Assembly: GCF_022447245.1 (NCBI RefSeq)
Contig: NZ_JAKVBC010000012.1
Location: 62,001 to 126,000 of the forward strand
Reading direction: 5' to 3'
Source of the DNA: Kordia sp.
GTDB lineage: Bacteria > Bacteroidota > Bacteroidia > Flavobacteriales > Flavobacteriaceae
Length of the DNA stretch: 64,000 bases
Every line of letters begins with the position of its first letter. Position 1 is the first letter of the stretch. Below are positions 3,752-60,326 of this stretch, one piece after another. The notes beneath the pieces are model-generated. The model saw only the letters and a program-made list of their open reading frames with translations, was not told the DNA's origin and made no database searches. The position numbers and the translations under genes are program-made.

Positions 3752-4539
3752 GTGGCTTTTAATTCGTATATCATTGGATAGAGTTTATCTTTTGTTTCAT
3801 ACATTCCTTCTTCATTTTTCACTAAATCAGGCAATACATCGTATGGTGATGCATCGTGTTCCGTAAGGAATTCAATTGTCAAACCTGCATTAATTAAAGC
3901 GCTGATAACGTCTCCCAATCCATGGTTCCACGCATATTCTTTACTTATTATTTTAGTTTTTCCATCTTCTGCATACGTTCCTTCATATTCTTCATAAATT
4001 ACTTCATCTTGACTGTATGCATATCTTAACACTGGCGGTGTCTGTAAATAATCAAACATCCATACAATGGGATGAAATTCTGCCATGTAAAATGTTCCAT
4101 CATCTTTTAAACGCGATGCAATAATCGTTGCCCACTTTGTTAAGTCTGGCAACCAACCAATAGTCCCATAGCTTGTAAATACAATATCAAATGTATCGGT
4201 TACATGGTCATTTACATCAAATACATTACAACAATGAAAAGTAGCGTCTAAATTCAGCTCTTCGTTCAAGGATTTTGCTAATTTAATTGCTTCATCAGAC
4301 AAATCAATTCCTGTGCATTTTGCCCCCATTCGAGCAAAACTTAAGGTATCTTGTCCAAAATGACATTGCAAGTGTAATAATGATTTTCCAGCAATATTTG
4401 GGAGACTATTCAGTTCATATTTCATCAGTGAAGATTTCCCTTTTTTAAAATCTTCCATTGCATACATTTCACTTTTTGCGTGAACTGCTACTTTCTTATT
4501 CCAAGTCTCTTTATTAGTTTTAAAATAATTATCATTCAT
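3733..4539 (-). CDS. Class I SAM-dependent methyltransferase
   Basis: The 268-residue protein carries the SAM-binding motif I as LLHLQCHFGQDTLSFA (about residues 54-69), then GIDLSDEAI (motif II acidic residue) and FDIVFTSYGTIGWL (motif IV). The substrate cannot be told from sequence; related soluble methyltransferases act on small molecules. The stop codon lies inside the shared terminator hairpin, and the gene appears monocistronic. Confidence 0.85.
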   Translation of the reverse strand: MNDNYFKTNKETWNKKVAVHAKSEMYAMEDFKKGKSSLMKYELNSLPNIAGKSLLHLQCHFGQDTLSFARMGAKCTGIDLSDEAIKLAKSLNEELNLDATFHCCNVFDVNDHVTDTFDIVFTSYGTIGWLPDLTKWATIIASRLKDDGTFYMAEFHPIVWMFDYLQTPPVLRYAYSQDEVIYEEYEGTYAEDGKTKIISKEYAWNHGLGDVISALINAGLTIEFLTEHDASPYDVLPDLVKNEEGMYETKDKLYPMIYELKATKKPRK

Positions 4540-4658
4540 TTTGTCGGATTTTTATGGCTTTTATCGTATTATTGTTTATGATTTTCCTCCTTATGTACAA
4601 TTGTAAGGAAAAAATTCTAAATCGTACCTGAAATAATCTTACTTAAATTAATTTATAT

Positions 4659-6605
4659 ATGAAAAAAACTACTTTTTCACTATTTAAAAGTATTTTCCTT
4701 TTATGCTTGTTGATGAGTTTTACAACGTATGCTCAAAATGTTGATGTAATTATTACCGTCGATTGGCCGCAATGGTCTTCTGAAAACCGAGTAGAGTTAT
4801 ACAGTCCTAGCGGCACTTTATTACAAACTGTAGATAATGGCTTTGATGGTAGCGGAAATGCTCCTTATAATGAAACAACAACCGCTGTAAGTTACCCAAT
4901 TGACGACAATATGCCAGCAGGAACTGGTTATTATGTTACTGTATATGACTTTTATGGAGATGATTGGAATGGCAGTGGAAGTTTGACAATTACTGCAGAT
5001 GGACAAACTGCATACACTTTTAATGGAGATTTTTCCAATAATGTTACTTCAGGAAATCCTGTTCAGATTTCTCAAACATTCTATTTTGCTTTAGAGGAAG
5101 CTCCTGCGCCTCCGCCTCCTTTCCCTGGAGTTTCACAATTTGATACCAGCGGAAACGAATACATAGAGTATATTCCTGGAAATATGCCAATTATTATTGC
5201 CGCACCACATGGTGGAGTAAAGCAATCTGGGCAAACTATTGGAGGAACATTTTATGCTGATAATGATGGTGCTTTACCAGATAGAGGTTGTGGTACCAAT
5301 GAAAGAGATGATAACACTGATATTCTGGTTCGTGAAATTCAACAATCCGTTTTTGAACAAACTGGTTGTTATCCGTATGTGATTATAAACAACTTACACA
5401 GAAGTAAATTAGATCCAAATAGAGAACAAAACGAAGCTACTTGCGGAGATGCTGATGCCTTATTCTATTGGAACACTTTCCATAACTTCATTGATCAAGC
5501 AAGCGCAGATGTAATGAACAAATGGGGAAAAGGATTGTTTATAGATTTACATGGACAAAGTCATAGTGTCCCTAGAATTGAAGCAGGTTATAATATTTCG
5601 GCTTCTGACTTAAATAATGCAACTCCTAACTATTTAAATTCAGTATCAAACTCAACAATTACAAATCTTGTAAGTAATAATTTAGGAAACCTGACTCAAG
5701 AAGAGTTGGTTCGTGGCCCAAGCAGTTTAGGTGGACTTTTTAAAGATACTGGTGGAGCATTCTACAACGCACAAGGATATTCTGGTTGCGGTGTAACTTC
5801 TGGTTATCGTACCATTCCTAGTGATTTTGATAGTGGCGCTTCTAATAGCTGTGATGATACACGTCCATTTGGCAATGCTTATTTTGATGGAGATTTCTAC
5901 AACAACAGACGTCACGGTTCTGGTCCAGCTGCTAGTGATGGTGTTGGCGGCGGTGGAACTATTGATGGAATTATGACCGAAGTTAACCGTCGTGTACGTG
6001 ACTTAGGAACGTATAATGGAAATGTATATGATACAAGACCACAAACTTTAGTGCCTTTTGCTGATGATTATGCAACAGTAATCAAAAACTATATTGATTT
6101 ACATTACAATGACTTTGCAAACTTTATGTATGCAAATAATACGTATGCAATGGACGATACAGATCCAACACCAACACGTACAACGGGTGTAACTGGTGTA
6201 TTTACAGCAACGCCTGCTGGATTAGTGATCAATACAACTACAGGGGAAATTGATTTATCAGCTTCTACGATGGGAGTGTATACGATTACACATACTGTTG
6301 GTGATTGTAATTTATATGAAACGTCTACAAGTATGACGATCACAAATACGTTGAGTACAAACGATTTTGAAGAAGCTGTTTTTGCTATGTACCCGAATCC
6401 AACTACTGGAAAATTACAGATTGAATCTACTACTCCAATTTCAAAAGTAAACGTATACAATTTAGTGGGACAGCAAGTAAAAACGTTTGGAATGCAAAAC
6501 GATCAAAAAGCTATTGATATTAGTGAATTAAAAACAGGAAGTTATTTTGTAAATCTGCAAGATGCTGCTGGAAACACATATACGAAACTTATTGTGAAGA
6601 AGTAA
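4659..6605 (+). CDS. T9SS-secreted N-formylglutamate amidohydrolase-like protein
   Basis: 648 residues: a signal peptide (MKKTTFSLFKS to TYAQ), a beta-rich N-terminal domain (about 25-145), a proline linker (APAPPPPFPG), a catalytic-type domain (about 165-485) and a C-terminal T9SS type A sorting domain (MYPNPTTGKL to LIVKK, last 75 residues). The central domain has IIAAPHGG, NNLHRSKLDPNRE and LFIDLHGQSH, patterns of the N-formylglutamate amidohydrolase/zinc amidohydrolase superfamily. Unlike cytosolic HutG-type enzymes this one is built for export across the outer membrane, so the substrate is probably an extracellular amide or peptide (inference). A hairpin terminator follows. Confidence 0.8.
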   Translation: MKKTTFSLFKSIFLLCLLMSFTTYAQNVDVIITVDWPQWSSENRVELYSPSGTLLQTVDNGFDGSGNAPYNETTTAVSYPIDDNMPAGTGYYVTVYDFYGDDWNGSGSLTITADGQTAYTFNGDFSNNVTSGNPVQISQTFYFALEEAPAPPPPFPGVSQFDTSGNEYIEYIPGNMPIIIAAPHGGVKQSGQTIGGTFYADNDGALPDRGCGTNERDDNTDILVREIQQSVFEQTGCYPYVIINNLHRSKLDPNREQNEATCGDADALFYWNTFHNFIDQASADVMNKWGKGLFIDLHGQSHSVPRIEAGYNISASDLNNATPNYLNSVSNSTITNLVSNNLGNLTQEELVRGPSSLGGLFKDTGGAFYNAQGYSGCGVTSGYRTIPSDFDSGASNSCDDTRPFGNAYFDGDFYNNRRHGSGPAASDGVGGGGTIDGIMTEVNRRVRDLGTYNGNVYDTRPQTLVPFADDYATVIKNYIDLHYNDFANFMYANNTYAMDDTDPTPTRTTGVTGVFTATPAGLVINTTTGEIDLSASTMGVYTITHTVGDCNLYETSTSMTITNTLSTNDFEEAVFAMYPNPTTGKLQIESTTPISKVNVYNLVGQQVKTFGMQNDQKAIDISELKTGSYFVNLQDAAGNTYTKLIVKK

Positions 6606-8334: not shown

Positions 8335-9474
8335 TTAATTACAAATCTCAGCATATGCACTGTTTTCATTACTTTGCACAAATTCGTGTAGCAAACCTTC
8401 ATCTATGGTTATGTTTTCAGGAATCATGCGCAATCGGTATTTCCCTTCTCCTAAAAACGTAAACAAGTCTCTTCGTTCCAGCTGTTGTTCGCTATCGAGT
8501 TGTAGTATTTCGTTTACATTTTCTATGATACGCGTAAGGTAGGTTTGATTTTTAATTTCGCCTCCAGAACTCACCAAAATACTTTGTACATCACCTGTAC
8601 CATTTGCACGACGAATTGCAAATTTTAATAGATTTTTATATTGTGTGGTTTTCGATCGAAAATCGACTTCTGCATTGTTGATATTTTTAGATGGAATGCT
8701 TAGTTGAATCAAAGACCAATCTAAAAATTGAATACGCATTTCGTTTGGTCGCGGTGTATTTGCCAATTGAATTACCCAACTTGTTGCCAATACCAAGAAT
8801 AAAGAAATCAACGATGTTTTGGCTATTATTTTAATTAATAATGTTGGAAACGTATCGTTCATTCCTAAAAATACTTCTGGCAATTGCGAGATAAAAATCA
8901 ATACCATAATGACTGCCGAAATCATAGCAACTAAGTGCAATCCACGATATAAAAAAGTTTTGTAAAACGAAATCAGTAACAAAAAACATAAGAAGCCTGA
9001 TAAAATCAAATCGGGTACTGCATTCCATTTGACACCAAAATGCACATTATCTCCTCCAAAAACACCTGCCATCACTAAGGTAATTGTAGCAACTGCGAGA
9101 ATCATTCCGATGATAATCTTTACATTTTTTATATTGTTATAGATAAATTTTGGCGCATAGTAAAAGTAAAAAAGCGCCATCAATAGGAATAAATTATTGA
9201 CAATCGATAATAAGTTGACACCAACTTGATACGTCATTTGTTCTGAAAATTCAAAATGCTTTGCGATGTATGCCCAAATTCCTGAGCCTACCCATACAAA
9301 CATTGCCAAGCTCAAATATAATAATCCACTATCTACACGCTTTTGTGAGGCATCTTCTTCTAAAATTTGACGAAAACGCTTCCGTATGTTTGAGTAAATT
9401 GCTAATAGTAGAATAGCTCCAACAAAGGATATAAAAATATGCGCTAGGTTATGAAACTGTTCTACATTAGTCAT
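8335..9474 (-). CDS. Multi-pass membrane protein with C-terminal soluble domain, unknown function
   Basis: 379 residues. The N-terminal two thirds hold about seven transmembrane helices (for example FISFVGAILLLAIYS, LSLAMFVWVGSGIWAY, IIGMILAVATITLVM). The last 120 residues are soluble and contain LLKFAIRRANGTGDVQS and EQQLERRDLFTFLGEGKYRL. I do not recognise the family; seven helices plus a cytosolic tail suggest a sensor or regulator, but no kinase or HTH motif is visible. It starts 3 bp after the stop of the ACMSD-like gene and so is translated from the same message. Confidence 0.75.
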   Translation of the reverse strand: MTNVEQFHNLAHIFISFVGAILLLAIYSNIRKRFRQILEEDASQKRVDSGLLYLSLAMFVWVGSGIWAYIAKHFEFSEQMTYQVGVNLLSIVNNLFLLMALFYFYYAPKFIYNNIKNVKIIIGMILAVATITLVMAGVFGGDNVHFGVKWNAVPDLILSGFLCFLLLISFYKTFLYRGLHLVAMISAVIMVLIFISQLPEVFLGMNDTFPTLLIKIIAKTSLISLFLVLATSWVIQLANTPRPNEMRIQFLDWSLIQLSIPSKNINNAEVDFRSKTTQYKNLLKFAIRRANGTGDVQSILVSSGGEIKNQTYLTRIIENVNEILQLDSEQQLERRDLFTFLGEGKYRLRMIPENITIDEGLLHEFVQSNENSAYAEICN

Positions 9475-9477
9475 CTG

Positions 9478-10563
9478 CTATTCTCCCAATATCTTACGAA
9501 CCAAGTCTTTTTTAGCAGTTTCATCATCACCAAATAACCAACGAAGTACATTGTCTTCCCAGATGTCATCGTATTGTTCTTGGTTGATAATGTCTCGTTC
9601 TATAGCTAAGTCTAGTAATTTGCCAGGATACGAAGATTGTGCATCACTTTCCATTTCTCCTAACGGATACGGATCGTCTAATCCCATGATAATTTGATTG
9701 TTCCCTTGGCGTTCTACCATCAATTTAAACGAATCTGTATCGTGTACTAATGTATCAAAGTAAATATTAGGATGCCCTACGGCTTTTCGTGGATGTACTT
9801 TTCCTTCAAACAAATCTGGACGTCCATCAAATCCTTGAATTCTTCTTCCCAAGTTCATTTGTGCCAATTGTCCACCATGTGCAAAACAGGTTCTAATATT
9901 TGGGAAACGCTCTTGCATTCCATTCAGAGTATAAAAATGATACGCATCACCACATTGTGCCAACATCCAAATTAAGTGAAAACGCCAGTTTACATTTTGT
10001 AGTTTAATCATTTTATCGCCATCGTAGGGATGAATTTCAATAGCGAGTTTGTATTTATCAGCCAATTCAAAAATTGGATTATTTTCTTCATCAAAAACCG
10101 ATCGCCACTGCCCTATTGAGTCCATAAAATGCGTTGGTAAACACAGTACACGTAAGCCTAAGTCTTCTACACAACGTTCTATTTCCCACAAAGCACCATG
10201 TATAAAACCTGGATGCACTACAAATCCGCAGGTAAATTTTGAAGGATGATTTCGTTGAACTTCTGCATTAAAATCATTCTGAAAACGTAGCGCATGTTTC
10301 ATGACTTCTAAGCGCAATCCATTTCCATACAACTGCGAAAGATTTAAAATTACCGCATGATCAATTTTGTTTTTCTCCATCCATTCCAGTTTTTCATTTA
10401 AGAAAAAACTAGAATCTGTTACAGGTCGTTTCCAACCTTCTTGTAGCATATATTTACGTTCATCATCTACCCAAAACACCTTTTTTTCTTTCATAAAAGC
10501 AGGAATTTGTTCAGGGTAAGGTAACAAATGTGAGTGGCCGTTTATTCGCAGTTTTCGTTTCAA
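9478..10563 (-). CDS. ACMSD-like amidohydrolase (aminocarboxymuconate semialdehyde decarboxylase)
   Basis: 361 residues of the amidohydrolase superfamily. Metal motifs: GHSHLLP near residue 9 (HxH), AIEIHPYDGDK (His), CFAHGGQ, and GLDDPYPLGEMES near residue 300, which corresponds to the GTDYPFPLGE motif of ACMSD with its metal-binding Asp. ACMSD converts 2-amino-3-carboxymuconate semialdehyde to 2-aminomuconate semialdehyde in the 2-nitrobenzoate/kynurenine pathway (NbaD in Pseudomonas). The dehydrogenase and deaminase for the next steps are upstream on the same strand, which supports the assignment. The C-terminus ends FGDDETAKKDLVRKILGE and abuts a membrane protein gene. Confidence 0.82.
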   Translation of the reverse strand: MKRKLRINGHSHLLPYPEQIPAFMKEKKVFWVDDERKYMLQEGWKRPVTDSSFFLNEKLEWMEKNKIDHAVILNLSQLYGNGLRLEVMKHALRFQNDFNAEVQRNHPSKFTCGFVVHPGFIHGALWEIERCVEDLGLRVLCLPTHFMDSIGQWRSVFDEENNPIFELADKYKLAIEIHPYDGDKMIKLQNVNWRFHLIWMLAQCGDAYHFYTLNGMQERFPNIRTCFAHGGQLAQMNLGRRIQGFDGRPDLFEGKVHPRKAVGHPNIYFDTLVHDTDSFKLMVERQGNNQIIMGLDDPYPLGEMESDAQSSYPGKLLDLAIERDIINQEQYDDIWEDNVLRWLFGDDETAKKDLVRKILGE

Positions 10564-10799
10564 GGTTGTGTTGTTTTAAGCGTGTTCAAAAGTGCATTTC
10601 GACTATATCTTATTGAATAAAAACTAGTAAGATACTATTTCTATCCTTTACGCAAATTAATTCTATAAAAATAGTATTTATTATGAAATTTGTGATGTAT
10701 TTAACGTTTTAAAATATTTAAGTTAAAAAAAAGCCTTTAAACTTTTCAATTTCTCAAAAAGCGTAAAGACTCTTAAAATATGGTCGGTTGGTTATTTGC

Positions 10800-11384
10800 T
10801 TAACTTACAAAAGCTGCGGCTACTTTTCGAGCGCTTTTTAATGTAATTGTATTGTTAAACTTATTTTGATAGGCAAAAGTAGTTTCTTTCCCTTGTTTTT
10901 GTGCCACAACTTTAACTGGAAATACAAATGATGCTGCGTCCAAATCCAGCTCGTGAGATGCTGCATTATCGCTGTAACTTTCAATAAGTCCAGCAAACTC
11001 TGTAGCTAATTTTTCGTTTAAAATGTAGAATTTGCTTCCTCCATTTTGCTTTACGATTAATGCTAATTCTTTACTATGAAATCCTAGCATTGGTTTTTTG
11101 TGTAATGGAATTGCAAAGCAACTACTGTTGAGTTGTACAACTTGAGACGCATTGTACATATACCCTTCTTTATCTAATGCTCTTACTAAACGTCCATGCG
11201 TGTTAGCTACATTTGCAGATAAATTAGAAATAGAAATGTGGTTCACAGTACTTAGCAAACGGTTAAATCCTTCTCCGATGCTGGTAAGTGAAACATTCTG
11301 ATTACTTGCTAGTGCAGAACTAGGGAACATTGATAGCGCGCCTGCGCCCATGATACTAGATGCAATAAAGTTTCTTCTATTCAT
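10800..11384 (-). CDS. Tat-exported protein of unknown function in the aminomuconate cluster
   Basis: 194 residues starting MNRRNFIASSIMGAGALSMF, with a twin-arginine motif (RRNFI) followed by a hydrophobic stretch and an SALAS cleavage region, so it is a likely Tat substrate. The mature protein shows FNRLLSTVNHISISN and ends TITLKSARKVAAAFVS; I recognise no family and no cofactor motif. It lies between the SDR and ACMSD-like genes on the same strand, with gaps of about 200-240 bp on each side, so it may have its own promoter. A tatA gene is at 42.1 kb. Confidence 0.75.
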   Translation of the reverse strand: MNRRNFIASSIMGAGALSMFPSSALASNQNVSLTSIGEGFNRLLSTVNHISISNLSANVANTHGRLVRALDKEGYMYNASQVVQLNSSCFAIPLHKKPMLGFHSKELALIVKQNGGSKFYILNEKLATEFAGLIESYSDNAASHELDLDAASFVFPVKVVAQKQGKETTFAYQNKFNNTITLKSARKVAAAFVS

Positions 11385-11590
11385 ATTATGGTTAGTTTAT
11401 TAGTTAGCAATGCAATGTACATCGCAAAAGTGGTTTACTGTTAATCAATTTAAGGATTTTTTAACACTTTTTTGAAAGATTCAATGAAAAATATTAATTT
11501 CAGTTAGTTTCACTTTTATAATTATAAGATTTTTAATCCATCGTTTATAAATTATACAGTCCAAAATCAGAAATGTTTATTTTAAGAATA

Positions 11591-12379
11591 TTACAAAGAT
11601 TTTGTACGTCCTCCATCTACAGGCACATTAATTCCATTTATATACGAAGCAGCTTCACTAGCTAAGAAGGCTACAGCGTTTGCAATTTCTTGTGGTTGTG
11701 CAAAACGTTTGGCCGGCACCGCACTTTTCATAGCTTCGCTTACCTCATCAATTGATTTTCCTGTTTTAGCTGCCTTGTTTTTTATAATTTCTGATAAACG
11801 TTCAGTAGCTGTTGCACCTGGCAATACGTTGTTTACTGTGATTCCAAATTGTCCTAATTCGTTTGCTAATGTTTTTGACCAGTTGGCTACAGCTCCACGA
11901 ATAGTGTTTGAAACGCCCAAACCGTCTAAAGGTTGTTTTACCGAAGTAGATATTACATTGATGATTCGTCCATAACCAGCTTCTTTCATACCTCCTACTA
12001 CAGTTTGTGCTAATACATGATTGCATTTTAAGTGTTGAGTAAAGGCACGTTCAAACTCATCAATTTTCGCGTTAAATACTGGTCCGCCAGCTGGTCCGCC
12101 TGTGTTATTGATTAAGATATGAAAGGAATCATTTTCTGAAACATGTGCTTCAATTTTTGCTCTCAATCCATCTGGATTTTGAAAGTCAGCAACGATATAA
12201 TTGTGTTTCTGTCCTTTTGAAGTATCTAATTCTGAAAGTACATTTTGTAATTTTTCTTCATTTCTAGCAGTCAAAGTTACATTAGCTCCTAGCATTGCTA
12301 GCTCTTGTGCAGTTGCTTTTCCAATTCCTTGTGTACTTCCACAAACAAGTGCGTTTTTATGTTGTAAGTTTAGGTTCAT
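11591..12379 (-). CDS. Short-chain dehydrogenase/reductase with an altered catalytic motif
   Basis: 262 residues with the SDR fold: cofactor motif GSTQGIGKA (about 14-22), NNTGG (about 90-94) and C-terminal NGINVPVDGG. The catalytic serine region reads ISTSVKQPLDGLGVSNTIR; at the place of the usual YxxxK there is SNTIR, so the Tyr and Lys of the classical site are replaced by Ser and Arg. It sits between the aldehyde dehydrogenase and the ACMSD-like gene, suggesting a part in the aminomuconate pathway, but the reaction is unknown. The 99 bp upstream contain octamer repeats. Confidence 0.85.
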   Translation of the reverse strand: MNLNLQHKNALVCGSTQGIGKATAQELAMLGANVTLTARNEEKLQNVLSELDTSKGQKHNYIVADFQNPDGLRAKIEAHVSENDSFHILINNTGGPAGGPVFNAKIDEFERAFTQHLKCNHVLAQTVVGGMKEAGYGRIINVISTSVKQPLDGLGVSNTIRGAVANWSKTLANELGQFGITVNNVLPGATATERLSEIIKNKAAKTGKSIDEVSEAMKSAVPAKRFAQPQEIANAVAFLASEAASYINGINVPVDGGRTKSL

Positions 12380-12408
12380 ATGTTGTTTGTTATTTTCTCT
12401 TTTCGTTG

Positions 12409-12436
12409 ATTTGTTGATTTGTTGATTTGTTAGTTT
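12409..12436. repeat. Octamer tandem repeat upstream of the SDR gene
   Basis: Three copies of GTTGATTT, plus a fourth degenerate copy GTTAGTTT, run head to tail about 30-57 bp upstream of the SDR start. Related TTGATTTG fragments occur at about 14434-14456. Copy-number change here would move promoter elements. Confidence 0.75.
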
Positions 12437-12478
12437 AAAATACTGTTCAACTTAAAACTCAACATTTATAATTTTATA

Positions 12479-13924
12479 CTACGAATATTTAATACATATA
12501 TTTTTAGGTTCTGTGAAGAAACGTAAAGCTTCTAATCCACCTTCACGACCTACTCCTGAGTTTTTCATTCCACCAAAAGGTGTACGTAAATCACGCAATA
12601 ACCATGTATTTACCCAAACAATTCCTGCTTCGAGTTGTTTAGACATACGCATGGTACGGTTTAAATTGTTTGTCCATAATGTAGATGACAATCCATATCG
12701 TACTCCATTTGCCATAGCTAAGACTTCCTCTTCTGTATCAAATGGCATGATAGTTACAATTGGACCAAATATTTCTTCTTGATTTACACGACATTGATCG
12801 GTTGGTACTTCAATGACTGTTGGCTGTAAGTAGTATCCATTTTCAAATCCTTCAACTACAACCCCATTTCCACCGCATAGAATGGTTCCGCCTTCTTCTT
12901 TGGCGATGTCTATATATGATTTTACTTTTTCTAAGTGTGGTTTTGATACTAAAGCACCAACTTTTGTAGTTTCATCAAATGGATTCCCTACTTTGAGTTG
13001 TTTCACGCGTGCCACAAAGTCCGTTTTGAATTTGTCATAGATGCTTCTTTCTACAAAAATTCGCGATCCACACAAACAGATTTGTCCTTGATTTGCAAAG
13101 GAAGATCGCACCGTAACTTTCAACATTTCGTCATAATCACAATCTGTAAAGATGATATTTGGATTTTTTCCTCCTAATTCTAGCGAGAGCTTTTTAAACA
13201 TTGGTGCTGCAGTTCTTGCAATATGCGCTCCGGTTGCCGTTCCACCCGTAAATGATATCGCTTTTATGTTTGGATGCTCTGTAATTGCTTGTCCAGTAGT
13301 ATGTCCCAAACCGTGCACAATGTTTAATACACCGTTTGGCAAACCTGCTTTGGTACAGATTTCACCTAGTAAATATGCTGTCATGGGCGTGACTTCACTT
13401 GGCTTAGCTACAACCGTATTTCCTGTGGCTAATGCAGGCGCAATTTTCCACGTAAAAAGATATAATGGTAAATTCCATGGTGAAATGCAACCTACAACTC
13501 CTATTGGTTGACGCAAGGTAAAATTCATAGCATTGAGTCCAATACTTTCATGTGCTTCACTTGAAAATTGCGTAATGGCTTGTGCAAAGAATTTGAAGTT
13601 ACTTGTAGCTCTCGGAATGTCAATTCGCGAAGCTAGACTTAATGGTTTTCCATTGTCTAAAGATTCTGCATGTGCTAACTCTGTTAAGCTTTCTTCTATG
13701 AGTTCTGCAATTTTATTGAGAATATTGCTTCGTTCTTCAAGTGTTGTTTGCGACCAACTTGGAAAAGCAGCTTTGGCAGCTTGATATGCTGCTTCGACAT
13801 CTTCTGCTGACGAATTTGGAATGTGCCCGTACACTTCTCCATTGGAAGGATTGTAATTATCAATCCACGCGTTACTTTTGGGCGCTACATAACTTCCGTT
13901 GATATAGTTGAGAATCTTTTTCAT
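12479..13924 (-). CDS. Aldehyde dehydrogenase, probable 2-aminomuconate semialdehyde dehydrogenase
   Basis: 481 residues, full length for the NAD-dependent ALDH superfamily. Motifs: SPWNLPLYLFTWKIAPAL (about 148-165), SLELGGKNPN with the catalytic Glu (about 250), NQGQICLCGSR with the catalytic Cys (about 285), and EIFGPIVTIMPF near 385. It resembles 5-carboxymethyl-2-hydroxymuconate/2-aminomuconate semialdehyde dehydrogenases (AmnC/NbaE). Assignment to aminomuconate semialdehyde rests on the neighbours: an aminomuconate-deaminase-like RidA 8 bp upstream and the ACMSD-like gene downstream. Confidence 0.88.
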   Translation of the reverse strand: MKKILNYINGSYVAPKSNAWIDNYNPSNGEVYGHIPNSSAEDVEAAYQAAKAAFPSWSQTTLEERSNILNKIAELIEESLTELAHAESLDNGKPLSLASRIDIPRATSNFKFFAQAITQFSSEAHESIGLNAMNFTLRQPIGVVGCISPWNLPLYLFTWKIAPALATGNTVVAKPSEVTPMTAYLLGEICTKAGLPNGVLNIVHGLGHTTGQAITEHPNIKAISFTGGTATGAHIARTAAPMFKKLSLELGGKNPNIIFTDCDYDEMLKVTVRSSFANQGQICLCGSRIFVERSIYDKFKTDFVARVKQLKVGNPFDETTKVGALVSKPHLEKVKSYIDIAKEEGGTILCGGNGVVVEGFENGYYLQPTVIEVPTDQCRVNQEEIFGPIVTIMPFDTEEEVLAMANGVRYGLSSTLWTNNLNRTMRMSKQLEAGIVWVNTWLLRDLRTPFGGMKNSGVGREGGLEALRFFTEPKNICIKYS

Positions 13925-13932
13925 ACGATAAA

Positions 13933-14337
13933 CTATTGTTTTTTATACGCAACAACTTTAATCTCCACTACCAAATCAGGATGTGGCAATTGATGTACCG
14001 CAACTGTGGTACGTGTTGGTCCAGTTTCTTTATCAAAGAATTCTCCGTAAGCCTCATTGTATCCTGCAAAATCATTCATATTTACCAAAAATGAAGTCAC
14101 ATCTACAACATCTGCCAAACTTGCACCAACGCTTTGTAAGTTTTTGTCAATGTTTTTTAATACTTCACGGGTTTGTGTACGAATATTTAAATGCTTCGTT
14201 CCCATTTCGTCAATGATATCAACTCCGGCAATGGAATTGTCAGGTCTTCGTGAACTTGTTCCTGATACAAATATAAAATCTCCAACACGTTTGGTGTGTG
14301 GATATGCGCCTCTTGGAGTTACTTTTTTTTCTTGCAT
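13933..14337 (-). CDS. RidA-family protein, probable 2-aminomuconate deaminase
   Basis: 134 residues of the YjgF/YER057c/UK114 (RidA) family: [20 protein letters not shown] near residue 11, then [20 protein letters not shown] near the C-terminus, with the conserved Arg and Glu of the active pocket. RidA-type deaminases (AmnD/NbaF-like) hydrolyse 2-aminomuconate to 4-oxalocrotonate and ammonia. The gene is 8 bp upstream of the aldehyde dehydrogenase, so the two steps are co-expressed. A heptamer repeat lies 25-75 bp before the start codon. General imine deaminase activity is the alternative. Confidence 0.85.
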
Positions 14338-14361
14338 TTTTGTTGGGTGTTATTTATTAAT

Positions 14362-14412
14362 TTGGCTCTTGGCTCTTGGCTCTTGGCTCTTGGCTCTTGG
14401 CTCTTGGCTCTT
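14362..14412. repeat. Heptamer microsatellite TTGGCTC x7 in the RidA promoter region
   Basis: Seven perfect head-to-tail copies of TTGGCTC followed by TT occupy 51 bp beginning 25 bp upstream of the start codon of the minus-strand RidA gene. No gene on either strand explains it. Confidence 0.95.
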
Positions 14413-14516
14413 AAAAAGTATGTTTTTTATTAATTCGTTGATTTGTTAATTTGATTTGACTTTGTTACTCAAAAAACTTTTACATTTTACATCTAGCAGT
14501 TTTTCCATTTATAATT

Positions 14517-15041
14517 TCAAAGTACTTCTGCCATTTCCAGCAACTTAATAATGGTTTTCCAGTTTCTAGTTGTGGCTTGCGTTTTGAGTTTACGCTCAAA
14601 GAGATTGTTCGTCAATTTGCTTCTCCCAAAACCATTTGGACAGTAAAGATATACTTCTGAATCAATAATTTTAAATCGATCGTTTTTACTATCAACTTCT
14701 ATCTTCATTTCTTCTTTAGGAACTATTGCTAAAAATGTAATTGCTTGTTTTGAAATATCTTCTTCAGTAAATGGATTGTTAGCTATGGCTTTTTTCCATT
14801 GCTCGATTGTTTTTACCAAAACAGGCACATCATAATCATATTGTTTTTTGATTGCTTCCGAGATTTGGCTTCCTAATTTTTCTTGATCTTTTTCATCGGA
14901 TTTAAAAACCACATTTCCACTTTGAATATAGGTTTGTACGTCTGTAAAATTTAACTTAGAAAGCAAAGCACGAAGTTCTACCATAGGCAGTTTTTTACTT
15001 CCTGAAACGTTGATTCCACGTAAGATGGCAATGTATATCAT
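14517..15041 (-). CDS. DUF1697 domain protein
   Basis: The protein starts MIYIAILRGINVSGSKKLPM, the family's typical N-terminus (YIALLRGINVGG-like). I chose the ATG at 15041; the upstream TTG would add eight residues that do not fit the family. About 174 residues with VQTYIQSGNVVF and, near the end, RSKLTNNLFERKLKTQATTRN, all typical of DUF1697. The function is unknown. It is the first gene of the minus-strand run leading into the aminomuconate cluster, but with a 180-bp gap. Confidence 0.88.
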   Translation of the reverse strand: MIYIAILRGINVSGSKKLPMVELRALLSKLNFTDVQTYIQSGNVVFKSDEKDQEKLGSQISEAIKKQYDYDVPVLVKTIEQWKKAIANNPFTEEDISKQAITFLAIVPKEEMKIEVDSKNDRFKIIDSEVYLYCPNGFGRSKLTNNLFERKLKTQATTRNWKTIIKLLEMAEVL

Positions 15042-15277
15042 GTTGGTTGGTTGTGTGCGTTTCAAAGATACATTTTTTGAGATAATTATTTAATTGTTTT
15101 CCTATCGCTTTTGGTAACCTTATTCCTCTCTTTGTTGATTGCTTTTTTTGTGGACTAGTTAGAACTTGCTAACGTCAATATTAAAAAACCTAATTATTAC
15201 TTAAAGTATATTGCTCGTTTCGAATCTTTAGTTACTTTTATGAAACATTTTAACCATATACCTAACTACATTCCATA

Positions 15278-16099
15278 ATGAAAAACTCATTACTTTCCAT
15301 TATTATATTTCTTTTAGGAATTCAAACCATTTTTAGTCAAAACAACCAAAGTTCCGATATTGTTGTAGGCAGTACATTTAGCATTCATTCTGATATTCTA
15401 GGTGAAAATAGAACTTGTATTGTAAATCTCCCTGATTCTTATGAATATGCAGATGAAACTGATAGTTATCCCGTTATTATTTTGTTGGATGGATCTACGT
15501 ATTTTAAAACTGCGGCAAGCACGGTACATTTTATGAGTTCTGGCAGCAATAGAAATGGTTTGATGCCAGAAAGTATTGTGGTTGCTATTGAAAATGTAGA
15601 TCGTGAACGTGATTTTACACTAACTAAAATAAAAACCAAGCGTAAAAACACCATGGGTGGCGGAAGAAATTTTCTAAGGTTTATAGAAAAAGAGTTGATT
15701 CCATATATTGATAAAAATTATAAAACGAAACCATTTCGTACTCTTATTGGACATTCGTTAGGAGGACTTTTAACAATTAACGCGTATTTAGATAAAAACA
15801 GTCTTTTTGATGCCTATATTGCCATTGATCCTAGTCTTTGGTGGGACGAAAAAATGATGCAACAAAAGATAGCTACTGCACAACCTGTTTCATTACAGAA
15901 GAAATTATACATTGCAACGGCTAATCAAGGGGAACGAAATCGTGGACGCAATAAAAAAAGACACGATGCTTTTTATAAAGGTCTTACACAAAAAGCTAAA
16001 GAAACGTTAGATGCAAAAATTGAATATTTTGAAAATGAACATCATCGTTCTATTGTATTGATTGCTATGTATCAAGGATTAAAGTTTCTTCATCAATAA
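15278..16099 (+). CDS. Secreted alpha/beta hydrolase esterase (esterase D/Fes-like family)
   Basis: 273 residues with signal peptide (MKNSLLSIIIFLLGIQTIFSQ). The nucleophile elbow is GHSLGG (about residue 163), with LLDGSTYF upstream (about 69-76) and HHRS near the C-terminus (about 255) supplying the His. The layout fits putative esterases of the siderophore-esterase/S-formylglutathione hydrolase type. A possible promoter, TTG-N19-TACTTTTA, lies just upstream (about 15210-15239). It is followed by a decayed region. Confidence 0.85.
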   Translation: MKNSLLSIIIFLLGIQTIFSQNNQSSDIVVGSTFSIHSDILGENRTCIVNLPDSYEYADETDSYPVIILLDGSTYFKTAASTVHFMSSGSNRNGLMPESIVVAIENVDRERDFTLTKIKTKRKNTMGGGRNFLRFIEKELIPYIDKNYKTKPFRTLIGHSLGGLLTINAYLDKNSLFDAYIAIDPSLWWDEKMMQQKIATAQPVSLQKKLYIATANQGERNRGRNKKRHDAFYKGLTQKAKETLDAKIEYFENEHHRSIVLIAMYQGLKFLHQ

Positions 16100-51198: not shown

Positions 51199-51372
51199 AT
51201 GAAAAAAAAGACAAACCAATTACGTTTAAACAAAAAGCAAGTTAGTATCTTAAATCAATCTGCCGTTAAAGGTGGCAGACCTATGTTTACAATTCAATGT
51301 CCTATTGAAACCATTAATATCACAAGATGTTATGGAGCCAATCATTGTCAAAAATGGCCAGATCAGGATTAG
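51199..51372 (+). CDS. Short leader-GG peptide precursor (class I lanthipeptide-like leader)
   Basis: 57 residues. The leader MKKKTNQLRLNKKQVSILNQ, then SAVKGG, matches the Bacteroidetes pattern MKKKNLxxLxLNKxxISxLxxxxIxGG. The core is RPMFTIQCPIETINITRCYG with a tail ANHCQKWPDQD: three Cys, three Thr, one Trp. No lanthionine synthetase, radical SAM, protease or ABC exporter gene is within reach. A terminator follows 20 bp after the stop. Function (antimicrobial, signal or other) unknown. Confidence 0.7.
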   Translation: MKKKTNQLRLNKKQVSILNQSAVKGGRPMFTIQCPIETINITRCYGANHCQKWPDQD

Positions 51373-57689: not shown

Positions 57690-58331
57690 TTATTTTTTGA
57701 TAATTTTTTTAGTGATTGTACTTCCATTTGAGAATTCAATTTGCAACATATACATCCCTTGTGACATGCCAGACATATCAATTGTATTTTTAGAAGACTG
57801 AAACATTTCTTCTCCTAATACCGTATACAAAACAACTTTTTCAACATTTTGATTCGCTTGAATTCGTATAACGTATTTTGTTGGATTTGGATAGATTGCA
57901 ACTTCTTCTGTTGTAATTTCATCATTTGACAATGTCACCAAACTATTTTTATAAATTTTTGTAACATACATTCCAACACCAGTTGTTTGATATGTGTGCA
58001 CAATATCAATATCTCCATCTTATTCAATGTCTACAAATCGCAGGTATTCTACTGTATCTGTTATAAATCCATTGGTTTCCTCTGTATAAATTCCTGCTCC
58101 ATTGTTTTTGTAGAGCTTTGTGGTTGTTCCTCCAGATATTCCAACAAGATCTAAGTCGCCATCGCCATCTAAGTCTCCTAATTGCATAGAACTTATACCA
58201 TTTACACCCACAAAAGGCGTATTGGTTTCTTCAGAAAAGTTTTGACTATGCACATAATTTATAGCACTGATTATAATTGCAAGTACAATTGTTTTTACGG
58301 GGATTTTCACTTTGCTTATTTTGAGTAGCAA
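57690..58331 (-). pseudogene. Remnant of a T9SS-secreted FG-GAP/VCBS protein, in-frame stop
   Basis: One frame with a TAA at 58020-58022. Upstream: signal (MLLKISKVKIPVKTIVLAII to YVHSQ), then SMQLGDLDGDGDLDLVGISG. Downstream: DGDIDIVHTYQTTG, then the sorting domain IYPNPTKYVIRI to TITKKIIKK. Such proteins normally carry many repeats, so with only two this gene also looks internally deleted, leaving signal and T9SS tag. Confidence 0.75.
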
Positions 58332-58422
58332 AATGCATTATTCTTTTTGGACGACACTTTAAAAGTTTCCGAATGCATCATTTTAGCTTTTAAATGAACT
58401 CTAACAAGACTTTCAAATAAAA

Positions 58423-58457
58423 AAAACGATTATCAGAACATGTCTAATAATCGTTTT
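58423..58457 (-). terminator. Rho-independent terminator of the downstream peptide gene
   Basis: Stem AAAACGATTAT (58423-58433) / ATAATCGTTTT (58447-58457), with an A run on the left (T run in the minus transcript). Similar in sequence to the hairpin at 58859. Confidence 0.85.
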
Positions 58458-58483
58458 ATGTGCAATCAAATTAATTTTCTTTT

Positions 58484-58723
58484 CTAGCAGATTCCTACTG
58501 GCTGACAAGAGATACTAGGAGGACATCCATTTGTTGGGCAGTTTACTGATCCAGGAGGACATCCTACTGTTAGACAACCAAGTGTTCCCGGAGTTCCACA
58601 ATTAGTATCTGCATCTGCAAAACAAGATAGTGTTCCTCCACCTTTTACATTTTCTGATGCTAGGCTAGAAACAATACTCTTGTTTAGACTCAGTCCATTG
58701 TGTTTGAAATTCTTTTTTTTCAT
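58484..58723 (-). CDS. Cys/Pro-rich leader-GG peptide precursor (class I lanthipeptide-like), copy 1
   Basis: 79 residues. Leader MKKKNFKHNGLSLNKSIVSS and LASENVKGGG, then a core with eight Cys: SCFADADTNCG, GCLTVGCPPGSVNCPTNGCPP and SISCQPVGIC. The core is rich in Thr, Ser, Gly and Pro, suitable for lanthionines or disulfides, and ends on Cys. Copy 2 is 192 bp upstream; both share promoter and terminator layout. No maturation or export gene is adjacent. Confidence 0.75.
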   Translation of the reverse strand: MKKKNFKHNGLSLNKSIVSSLASENVKGGGTLSCFADADTNCGTPGTLGCLTVGCPPGSVNCPTNGCPPSISCQPVGIC

Positions 58724-58749
58724 GATTTTGGTATTTTGTGGTTAAACTT

Positions 58750-58813
58750 TAAAGTTACTTGATTACAAAAGATTTTCCTCTCTATAAAACCACACTAATT
58801 ATACACTAAAACC
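58750..58813 (-). promoter_or_regulatory. Predicted activator-dependent promoter with two 22-bp-spaced boxes (copy 1)
   Basis: The -7-like TAACTTTA is at 58757-58750, 27 bp before the ATG. Two direct TAAAACC boxes (plus strand 58785-58791 and 58807-58813) are exactly 22 bp apart, followed by TTATTTAACATT. There is no TTTG box 19 bp upstream of the -7 element. The same arrangement with identical spacing stands before copy 2. Confidence 0.6.
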
Positions 58814-58858
58814 TTATTTAACATTCTCTTTTTAATCAAGTTCAATCAATCGTATAAA

Positions 58859-58892
58859 AAAACGATCATCAGTATTACCCAATGATCGTTTT
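58859..58892 (-). terminator. Rho-independent terminator of the upstream peptide gene
   Basis: Stem AAAACGATCAT (58859-58869) / ATGATCGTTTT (58882-58892), with an A run on the left. Confidence 0.85.
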
Positions 58893-58915
58893 ATATATTT
58901 ATGACTAATTTTTAA

Positions 58916-59185
58916 TTAACAGATTCCATTTACTGGACAGGATTCTGAAATGAAAGGACATCCATCTGTCTGTGGTGGACAATTATTTGTTGGACAATTT
59001 ACCGTACATGCATTTGTTGGTGGACATGTATTTGTATAATTACACCCAACAGTGTTAGCACAAGCCGTATCTACAAAGATAAAGCAAGAGTTGGTAGCTC
59101 CTCCCATTATATTTTGTGACTCTAAACTAGAAATATTGTGCTTGTTTAGTTTTAGTCCTTTGTGACTTAAATTCTTTTTTTTCAT
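58916..59185 (-). CDS. Cys/Pro-rich leader-GG peptide precursor (class I lanthipeptide-like), copy 2
   Basis: 89 residues. Leader MKKKNLSHKGLKLNKHNISS and LESQNIMGG, then a core with ten Cys including NTCPPTNACTVNCPTNNCPP and CPVNGIC at the end. The VNCPTNxCPP block and the PVxGIC end are shared with copy 1, and the leaders are clearly homologous. The GG marks the expected leader cleavage site. No biosynthetic enzyme is next to it; apbE follows upstream on the same strand with a separate function. Confidence 0.75.
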   Translation of the reverse strand: MKKKNLSHKGLKLNKHNISSLESQNIMGGATNSCFIFVDTACANTVGCNYTNTCPPTNACTVNCPTNNCPPQTDGCPFISESCPVNGIC

Positions 59186-59211
59186 GATACTTCATTTTAT
59201 GGTTAATCTTT

Positions 59212-59275
59212 TAAAGTTACATGAACAAGCAGAGTTTTTGACTTTATAAAACCACAGTAAGACTACTTTAAAACC
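59212..59275 (-). promoter_or_regulatory. Predicted activator-dependent promoter with two 22-bp-spaced boxes (copy 2)
   Basis: TAACTTTA at 59219-59212, 27 bp before the ATG; direct TAAAACC boxes at 59247-59253 and 59269-59275, again 22 bp apart, then TTATTTAACATT. The distance from the proximal box to the ATG (62 bp) equals that in copy 1. Confidence 0.6.
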
Positions 59276-59294
59276 TTATTTAACATTTATTATG

Positions 59295-60326
59295 TTAGAA
59301 TTCAGTAATAATTAAATCTTGAAAGCCTTTTGTTGTATATTTTTGAATGTTCCCATATTGATCTCTACTCACCACATAAGCATCAACATCTTTCAATTCG
59401 CTTAGAAGCTTTTTTGTTTTTTCATAAGGCATTACCATAAACGCAGTAGCATACGCATCAGCCTTCATACAGTTATCAGCAATAACAGACACACTCAACA
59501 CATTGTTTTTCATTGGGTAGCCAGTTTTTGCATTTAGAATATGTACGTAATAATCTCCTGTTTCTGGATCTATTCTGTACTTTCTATAGTTTCCAGAAGT
59601 CGCCATTGCTTTATTTTCAAGCTCAATGAATTCAATATATTGACGCTCATCCGATTCTTGCACAGGACTATCAATAGCAACAGTCCATCTTTTCACTTTT
59701 TTGGTATTTTTTCCTTTGGTTAAGATTTCGCCTCCAACTTCAATAATGTAGTTTTTAATGCCTTTTTCGTCAAACATTTCACCGATAAGGTCAATTGCAT
59801 ATCCTTTACCCAAAGAATTAAAATCAAATGTCAAAGAAGGATGATCTTTGTATACTTTTCCTTCCTCTGAAATTCGCACTTTATCAAAGCCAGTAAACGT
59901 CATAATACTATCTACTTGCTCTTTGGTTAAATTATTTATTGGTTTTTCAGGACCAAATCCCCAAGCATTCACTAAAGCACCTACACTTGGATCAAAAAAA
60001 CCATCTGTTTTTTGATATACTTCTCTTGAAAAGTCATATACAACTCTAAAATATTTATCTATGACTACATCTTTTTCTCCTCTGTTGATTCTGGAAATAT
60101 CAGATGTTGGAATGTATGCAGACATCGACTGATTAACTACATGAAATACGTTTTCAATATCCTGCTGGTAATCTTCCTGTGCATTCTGAATTTCATATTG
60201 AATATTATACGTAGTTCCTAGTGCGTATCCTGAGTTTTTACGCATCATAACATCTTTCGGTTTTTCAACACAAGATGTTATTAAAAAAGCTATACACATG
60301 TATAGGGGTAATGTAATTGCTTTCAT
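59295..60326 (-). CDS. apbE: FAD:protein FMN transferase, lipoprotein
   Basis: 343 residues, lipoprotein signal with lipobox ITSC (MKAITLPLYMCIAFLITSCV). The ApbE features include GYALGTTYNIQYE near residue 34, FDPSVGALVNAWGF (about 106), FDFNSLGKGYAIDLIGE (about 175-191) and MATSGNYRKY (about 241), with Mg-binding residues near the C-terminus (ADAYATAFMVM). It attaches FMN to threonine in Nqr subunits, and here it sits in the nqr neighbourhood. It starts 7 bp after the small protein gene upstream. Confidence 0.95.
   Translation of the reverse strand: MKAITLPLYMCIAFLITSCVEKPKDVMMRKNSGYALGTTYNIQYEIQNAQEDYQQDIENVFHVVNQSMSAYIPTSDISRINRGEKDVVIDKYFRVVYDFSREVYQKTDGFFDPSVGALVNAWGFGPEKPINNLTKEQVDSIMTFTGFDKVRISEEGKVYKDHPSLTFDFNSLGKGYAIDLIGEMFDEKGIKNYIIEVGGEILTKGKNTKKVKRWTVAIDSPVQESDERQYIEFIELENKAMATSGNYRKYRIDPETGDYYVHILNAKTGYPMKNNVLSVSVIADNCMKADAYATAFMVMPYEKTKKLLSELKDVDAYVVSRDQYGNIQKYTTKGFQDLIITEF

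What the first reader, a model, noticed from the sequence alone, without database searches (positions are those of the whole stretch)
58484..59275. Tandem Cys/Pro-rich peptide precursors without maturation genes
Two paralogous precursors share a Bacteroidetes class I lanthipeptide-type leader (MKKKN..HxGLxLNK..SSL..N..GG) and cores with eight and ten Cys, repeated VNCPTNxCPP blocks and a terminal PVxGIC. No lanthionine dehydratase/cyclase, protease or exporter is near. The leader family is known; these cores, and how they are modified in trans, look worth characterising.
Basis: partly seen in the sequence, partly recalled or inferred. Interest (0 to 1): 0.75.

Follow-up and report, generated by a model that had tools for sequence, protein, structure and literature searches.

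The report
Scattered lanthipeptide precursors, one enzyme set
Two small cysteine-rich peptide genes in this marine bacterium (genus Kordia) belong to a family of well over a hundred such genes scattered over its genome, apparently served by one distant set of ring-forming and export enzymes, which would make the genus a natural library of ring-closed peptides.

Summary
Both ORFs exist as described (79 aa/8 Cys; 89 aa/10 Cys) and carry the LxLxKx5L...GG leader known from Bacteroidetes class I lanthipeptides. Their contig shows no LanB, LanC or C39 exporter. But they are not an isolated pair: the leader matches 143 places in this genome and 110-150 (150 scored at most) in each of 11 genomes of the genus. 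All 131 own ORFs with leader, GG and core contain core Cys; 109 of 129 cores compared resemble no other. Each of the 11 genomes has exactly one LanB N-terminal match. Here it lies on another contig beside LanC, a separate LanB elimination protein, precursors with the same leader, HlyD and a C39-ABC exporter. In 159 genomes of the family, the 7 with the leader all have LanB (17 do). The window pair has relatives beside apbE in 10 of 11 Kordia genomes, with cores under purifying selection. Best explanation: a class I counterpart of prochlorosins, one machine modifying many unlinked substrates in trans. The chemistry is inferred. Kordia is already called RiPP-rich in print (PMC11118758). Verdict: real, larger than reported, new variant of a known kind.

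The parts
58484..58723 (-). precursor 1: 29-aa leader ending GG and 50-aa core with 8 Cys and 10 Ser/Thr
   Evidence: NF038153 18.4 bits (cut-off 22); leader model A1 41.1 bits in the genome search
58916..59185 (-). precursor 2: 29-aa leader ending GG and 60-aa core with 10 Cys and 12 Ser/Thr
   Evidence: NF038153 20.2 bits; leader model A1 40.2 bits
58420..58459 (-). terminator-like hairpin with T-run downstream of precursor 1 (limits read by eye)
   Evidence: sequence; fold of 58395-58490, -19.9 kcal/mol
58853..58893 (-). terminator-like hairpin with T-run downstream of precursor 2 (limits read by eye)
   Evidence: sequence; fold of 58850-58925, -17.4 kcal/mol
51199..51372 (+). third leader-bearing precursor in the window (57 aa, core with 3 Cys), unlinked to the pair
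   Evidence: (genome C4:113199-113372), translated
59295..60326 (-). apbE (PF02424), syntenic anchor upstream of the pair in 10 of 11 Kordia genomes; not part of the peptide system

Best explanation
The two genes encode precursors of class I lanthipeptide type that belong to a genus-wide, dispersed substrate set. One conserved locus elsewhere in the genome (contig C1, about 227.6-238.9 kb: LanC, LanB glutamylation protein, separate LanB elimination protein, AraC/TPR regulator, precursors with the same leader, HlyD, C39-ABC exporter) is proposed to act in trans: the LanB pair binds the LxLxKx5L leader and dehydrates Ser/Thr of the core, LanC closes (methyl)lanthionine rings with the Cys, and the C39-ABC exporter cuts after GG and secretes the product. 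Shown: the sequences, the shared leader, the single LanB, the co-occurrence, the synteny and the purifying selection. Inferred: leader binding, ring formation, export, and that one machine serves nearly all substrates. The biological role is not shown; since the cores of this locus are conserved across the genus, I favour a conserved secreted effector or signal over a fast-changing strain-specific toxin.
For: Leader: 68 of 131 own precursors with GG and core have strict LxLxKx5L, 122 of 131 a relaxed form. Number: 143 matches at E<=0.01 in this genome and 110-150 in each of 11 genomes of the genus, 1523 in all, at most 150 candidates scored per genome; the NCBI model, not made from these sequences by me, gives 37-80 per genome at E<=0.05. 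One machine: 1 LanB N-terminal match in each of 11 genomes. Leader and machine linked: a leader model from 39 precursors within about 10 kb of LanB in other genomes hits 122 own ORFs at E<=0.001, precursor 1 at 8.4e-05; precursor 2 only at 0.0027 (the 39 were picked with the first leader model, so not fully independent). Co-occurrence: leader in 7 of 159 family genomes, LanB in 17 of 159, all 7 inside the 17 (hypergeometric P 4e-8, and 4e-6 without the two genomes of this genus). Cores: 131 of 131 hold Cys, 11.3% Cys against 1.9% in 1895 control ORFs (alternative starts counted apart), of which 54% have none. Window pair: Ser/Thr at -3 of 14 of 18 Cys, 4.3 expected, 0 of 20000 shuffles reached it. 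Selection: core dN/dS 0.17 in the group of precursor 2 (8 sequences), 0.06 in a second group (7), 0.23 in the group of precursor 1 (only 3) (synonymous sites near saturation). Machine conserved in 8 named Kordia loci: LanBN 88-98%, LanBC 89-98%, the 626-aa part of C39-ABC compared 95-97%. LanC aligns with solved LanC-like proteins at WC and CHG (that these are zinc ligands is recalled).
Against: No chemistry or expression data exist here. Both proteins are under the NF038153 cut-off. Over all 131 cores Ser/Thr at -3 of Cys is not significantly enriched (24.3% against 21.8%, z 1.6); the peaks are at -5 (z 5.2) and +2 (z 7.7), with depletion at -2 and +1, so the ring-spacing argument holds for this locus family only. 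Only 1 of the 131 lies within 10 kb of LanB (two weaker or GTG-start ORFs there were not among the 131). The genome has 6 C39 domains and a class V-like LanC locus, either of which could act on some substrates. 23 of 154 leader-bearing ORFs lack a GG in the expected place, some without a core, and 2 of the 131 cores are under 12 aa. 10 of the 17 LanB genomes of the family show no leader match.
Confidence: 0.7

Rival explanations
1. The peptides carry a GG leader for a C39-ABC exporter only. They are secreted unmodified by LanB and fold by disulfide bonds, as Cys-rich bacteriocin-like or structural peptides.
For: The GG site suits a C39 exporter, and the genome has 6 C39 domains. Ser/Thr at -3 of Cys is not enriched over all cores.
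Against: In the family sample the leader occurs only in genomes with LanB (7 of 7 in 159). C39 rings in 8 of 14 control genomes, the leader over its cut-off in none of the 14; C39 was not tallied over the family. Precursors beside LanB carry the same leader. Cores are rich in Thr (12.3%) as well as Cys.
Confidence: 0.15
2. Another RiPP enzyme modifies them: a radical SAM protein, a YcaO protein, or the class V-like kinase/HopA1/LanC set on contig C14.
For: The genome has a set of HopA1, LanC and APH-type kinase proteins. PMC11118758 reports rSAM-modified and lanthipeptide precursors in Kordia and says that misclassification between the two remains an issue (section 7 read; passages).
Against: Among 272 ORFs of 200 aa or more in the fetched own loci, 5 have CxxxCxxC. 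By Pfam 4 of the 5 are radical SAM proteins, with BATS (biotin synthase-like), HHH, weak spore-photoproduct-lyase and DUF3641 second matches and no SPASM-type match; the fifth is not radical SAM. Radical SAM and YcaO were not searched over the whole genome. The leader motif is the one described for LanB substrates.
Confidence: 0.1
3. The ORFs are remnants or chance ORFs without a product.
For: Several leader ORFs are truncated, for example C3:89122, whose likely counterpart in G008 (L186) has a full core.
Against: Window pair: synteny in 10 of 11 genomes and core dN/dS 0.17 and 0.23 in the groups of precursor 2 and 1; start context of 130 precursors uniform, A at -12 in 92% and at -3 in 82%; terminator-like hairpins; no hit in reversed or shuffled DNA.
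Confidence: 0.05

Closest known systems
Prochlorosins (ProcA/SyncA with ProcM/SyncM) of marine picocyanobacteria
   Same: One promiscuous enzyme, many precursors spread over the genome, single or in tandem, with a conserved leader ending GG and variable cores (PMC10783134, passages).
   Different: There the enzyme is class II LanM and the leader of the Nif11 family; here split LanB plus LanC and an LxLxKx5L leader.
Class I lanthipeptides of Bacteroidetes (leaders with LxLxKx5L and GG, C39 protease in the cluster; pinensin)
   Same: Leader motif, GG end and C39 exporter as in PMC7268733; split LanB as that paper states for pinensin (passages).
   Different: In the passages seen these are gene clusters with the precursor beside its enzymes; here nearly all precursors are unlinked.
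NCBIfam NF038153 lant_leader_L1a
   Same: Only family match of both proteins in that library; 20 own-genome matches are marked over its cut-off.
   Different: The two window proteins miss the cut-off of 22 bits (18.4 and 20.2).
RiPP-rich Kordia and Bacteroidota of the TrRiPP survey (PMC11118758)
   Same: Reports up to 176 predicted precursors on a Bacteroidota genome and names Kordia as an example for lanthipeptides and rSAM peptides (section 7 read); supposes distant or substrate-tolerant enzymes for precursors without neighbours (passage).
   Different: Section 7 and the passages seen do not describe a shared leader family, a single LanB locus serving it, or synteny and selection on cores; its supplement could not be opened here.

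Membership tests
Class I lanthipeptide precursor of Bacteroidetes type | leader motif LxLxKx5L | tested here: met
   LSLNKSIVSSL and LKLNKHNISSL; motif from PMC7268733
Class I lanthipeptide precursor of Bacteroidetes type | double glycine at the leader end | tested here: met
   both, and 131 of 154 own leader ORFs
Class I lanthipeptide precursor of Bacteroidetes type | core with Cys and enough Ser/Thr | tested here: met
   8 Cys and 10 Ser+Thr; 10 Cys and 12 Ser+Thr (sequences; counted by hand)
Class I lanthipeptide precursor of Bacteroidetes type | LanB dehydratase (both halves) and LanC in the genome | tested here: met
   PF04738 504 bits, PF14028 245 bits, PF05147 151 bits; in trans, not beside the genes
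Class I lanthipeptide precursor of Bacteroidetes type | lanthionine or methyllanthionine in the product | not testable with these tools
   needs mass spectrometry
NCBIfam NF038153 lant_leader_L1a | score at or above the curated cut-off of 22 bits | tested here: not met
   18.4 and 20.2 bits; so not filed under this model, only related to it
Prochlorosins (ProcM system) | bifunctional class II LanM synthetase | tested here: not met
   the three LanC-domain matches of the genome lie in frames of 427, 407 and 271 aa, too short for LanM (its length is recalled)
Prochlorosins (ProcM system) | one synthetase with many unlinked precursors | tested here: inconclusive
   1 LanB in each of 11 genomes and 110-150 leaders each; that it acts on them is not shown
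[quoted passage not shown]
   759 aa PF04738 and 302 aa PF14028 proteins whose ORFs overlap by 8 bases

The most novel reading that the evidence does not exclude
In every Kordia species one LanC/split-LanB/C39 exporter set modifies and exports well over a hundred unlinked precursors with mostly unrelated cores. That would be the largest lanthipeptide substrate set per genome known to me and the first of class I. Some cores, such as this pair with up to 8 and 10 rings, are kept for genus-wide functions while many turn over between species.
Probability: 0.55. Interest if true: 0.85.

Novelty: new variant of a known kind. Interest (0 to 1): 0.7.

Why it matters
If true, a tRNA-dependent class I dehydratase is naturally as tolerant as ProcM, with more than a thousand natural substrates in one genus. 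That makes it testable how one leader-guided enzyme set handles unrelated cores, and gives a large library of ring-closed peptides. It also shows that mining by gene cluster misses nearly all of them: only 1 of 131 lies within 10 kb of LanB. The contrast between conserved cores (this locus) and cores without a counterpart in a sister species allows a direct test of what such libraries are for.

Tried and rejected
Ring spacing as a general proof: Ser/Thr three residues before Cys is strong in the window pair and its 19-member locus family (112 of 165, 39 expected) but not over all 131 cores (z 1.6), so it is used only for the locus.

Shared promoter: an EM motif search on 130 upstream regions did not generalise (cross-validated AUC 0.48-0.55), and the flavobacterial promoter pattern is no more common than in controls (6 of 130 against 16 of 307). 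What remains is a start-site context: TTAAY at -28 to -15 in 52 of 130 against 15 of 254 other ORFs of 200 aa or more, whose start codons are only guesses.

Local maturase: no LanB, LanC or C39 on contig C4. Mobile-cassette spread was not tested.

Selection: the groups for dN/dS were set by eye from 19 sequences. One search used 8 and 7 of them and left out 4, precursor 1 among them; one search added the group of precursor 1 (3 sequences, core 0.23; 0.32 with a fourth) and all 19 together (core 0.24).

Orthology sample: 70 precursor ORFs in 20 stretches of G008 and 16 of G002, taken around the best-scoring leaders and so not random; 69 had a core long enough. 16 of 44 (G008) and 6 of 25 (G002) have an own-genome core match at E<=1e-10.

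Literature: 8 searches. No listed paper appeared to describe this Kordia system; PMC11118758 comes closest. One search listed only unrelated papers.

Correction: an earlier count said 9 named Kordia records; one search lists 8.

Full report
What is there. The window (64 kb of contig C4 of a 5.24 Mb genome in 82 contigs) holds two minus-strand ORFs at 58484-58723 and 58916-59185 with a common leader and Cys-rich cores. They sit between an FG-GAP/T9SS-tail gene split by a stop and apbE. Each has a terminator-like hairpin. NCBIfam gives one match, NF038153 lant_leader_L1a, at 18.4 and 20.2 bits against a cut-off of 22; Pfam gives none at E<=0.1. The leader fits LxLxKx5L...GG, which PMC7268733 describes for class I LanAs of Bacteroidetes, with a C39 protease often in the cluster (passages).

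Not a pair but a repertoire. NF038153 finds 101 places at E<=1 in the genome (150 of 193 candidates scored), 20 of them marked over its cut-off. A model of 25 leaders, both window leaders among them, finds 148 at E<=1 (150 of 344 scored) and 143 at E<=0.01 (150 of 307 scored). I fetched 97 stretches around these places and 3 around the LanC/LanB loci and found 154 ORFs of 9 bits or more, 131 of them with GG and a core. Reversed and shuffled DNA of the same loci gave none. The 131 lie in 79 groups on 36 contigs, 48 groups being single genes. Cores have a median of 40 aa and 4 Cys; none lacks Cys; Cys is 11.3% of the core and 0.1% of the leader. Of 129 cores of 12 aa or more, 109 resemble no other of the set at E<=1e-5; the largest group has 7 and contains the window pair.

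The machine. LanB (PF04738) occurs once, on C1; LanC-like domains occur on C1, C14 and, broken, on C5. On C1 from about 227.6 to 238.9 kb lie LanC, the LanB N-terminal protein, a separate LanB C-terminal protein, an AraC-type regulator with TPRs, small leader ORFs, HlyD and a C39-ABC exporter. A protein with a marginal sigma-70 region 2 match and a TPR protein precede it. LanBN (88-98%), LanBC (89-98%) and the compared part of C39-ABC (95-97%) are the most conserved of the 9 proteins compared there; LanC has 87-94%, the sigma-like protein 81-91%, HlyD 72-90%, the TPR protein 58-76%, the regulator 52-78% and a nearby subtilase 55-72%. A leader model made from 39 precursors near LanB in other genomes hits 122 own ORFs at E<=0.001; the 39 were picked with the first leader model, so this is not fully independent.

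Genus and family. All 11 genomes of the genus held have one LanB match and 110-150 leader matches at E<=0.01 (sum 1523). Of 159 family genomes (the family is Flavobacteriaceae if the genus is Kordia), 7 have the leader at E<=0.001 and all 7 have LanB, which 17 have. In that sample the counts outside the genus are 1-3. Of 392 genomes of the phylum 9 have the leader, with up to 19 matches in one genome outside the genus, all within about 3.3 kb. In these wide searches only up to 46 and 19 candidates per genome were scored, so counts there are low and presence may be missed.

The window locus in the genus. In 10 of 11 genomes 1 to 3 related precursors lie within 1.5 kb of apbE, 19 in all; G003 has none there. 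Core dN/dS is 0.17 in the group of precursor 2 (8 sequences) and 0.06 in a second group (7), leader 0.28 and 0.26. The group of precursor 1 (3 sequences) has core 0.23 and leader 0.17. Synonymous sites are close to saturation, so the values are rough; core pN/pS is 0.33, 0.16 and 0.35. So cores of this locus are kept, while many elsewhere are not: of 44 and 25 sampled precursors in two other species 16 and 6 have a clear own counterpart. In the locus family Ser or Thr stands three residues before 112 of 165 Cys (39 expected), in the window pair before 14 of 18, the spacing of a small (methyl)lanthionine ring such as nisin ring B (recalled). Over all 131 own cores this spacing is not enriched.

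How it most likely works. LanB/LanC in trans, then C39 cleavage after GG and export, as in the best explanation. Leader homology and the presence of the machine are shown; binding, chemistry and export are not. Solved relatives by sequence are, for LanBN, 9g04 and NisB (4wd9, 6m7y) and others; for the elimination protein, 9g04 and 5ehk; for LanC, 8byk (LanC-like), 3t33 and LANCL1/2 chains. The functions of the aligned residues are recalled.

What is known. Prochlorosins are the nearest in behaviour, with up to 83 precursors per genome in the passages seen (PMC10783134). PMC11118758 already calls Kordia RiPP-rich and gives up to 176 predicted precursors on a Bacteroidota genome (section 7 read). 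It supposes distant or substrate-tolerant enzymes for precursors without neighbours (passage). PMC7477175, PMC10734526, PMC13101523 and PMC9248904 (passages) treat Kordia gene clusters and in the passages seen say nothing of dispersed precursors. PMC9486935 and PMC12328550 (passages) cover split LanB and promiscuous enzymes; I saw no such case there. Hence: new variant of a known kind, with the chemistry unproven.

Noticed in passing
L133 (own genome C14:5000-24000), 9284-15703 (-): Class V-like lanthipeptide set: LanC, HopA1 protein, APH-type kinase, a 282-aa ORF packed with Cys/Thr repeats (PTGTQGC, TGYEGC; no Pfam match) that could be a giant precursor, and a subtilase with a pro-kumamolisin domain. 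The likeness to class V is recalled.
   Followed up: partly
L134 (own genome C5:1-14000), about 4325-6499: Decayed second Lan locus: LanC in pieces, a nucleotidyltransferase (PF01909) and a Cys-rich ORF with LNLKKMSISNL...GG whose reading frame has no start upstream of that leader. PMC11118758 mentions LanC with a nucleotidyltransferase in Kordia (passage).
   Followed up: partly
window 57690-58331 (-): FG-GAP protein with a T9SS sorting tail, split in two ORFs of one frame by a stop at about 58020.
   Followed up: no
130 upstream regions of own precursors: Uniform start context: TTAAY about 20 bases upstream in 52 of 130, A at -12 (92%) and -3 (82%), then mostly T and C/T before ATG.
   Followed up: partly
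L044 (own C3:89122-89199) and L186 (G008): A leader-only remnant in this genome whose likely counterpart in a sister species has a full Cys-rich core, a sign of birth and death of precursors.
   Followed up: no
L108 (own C34:175491-175781) and L204 (G002): Core made of tandem CP[IT]D[TS]-type units, each with one Cys and one or two Ser/Thr, also in another species.
   Followed up: no
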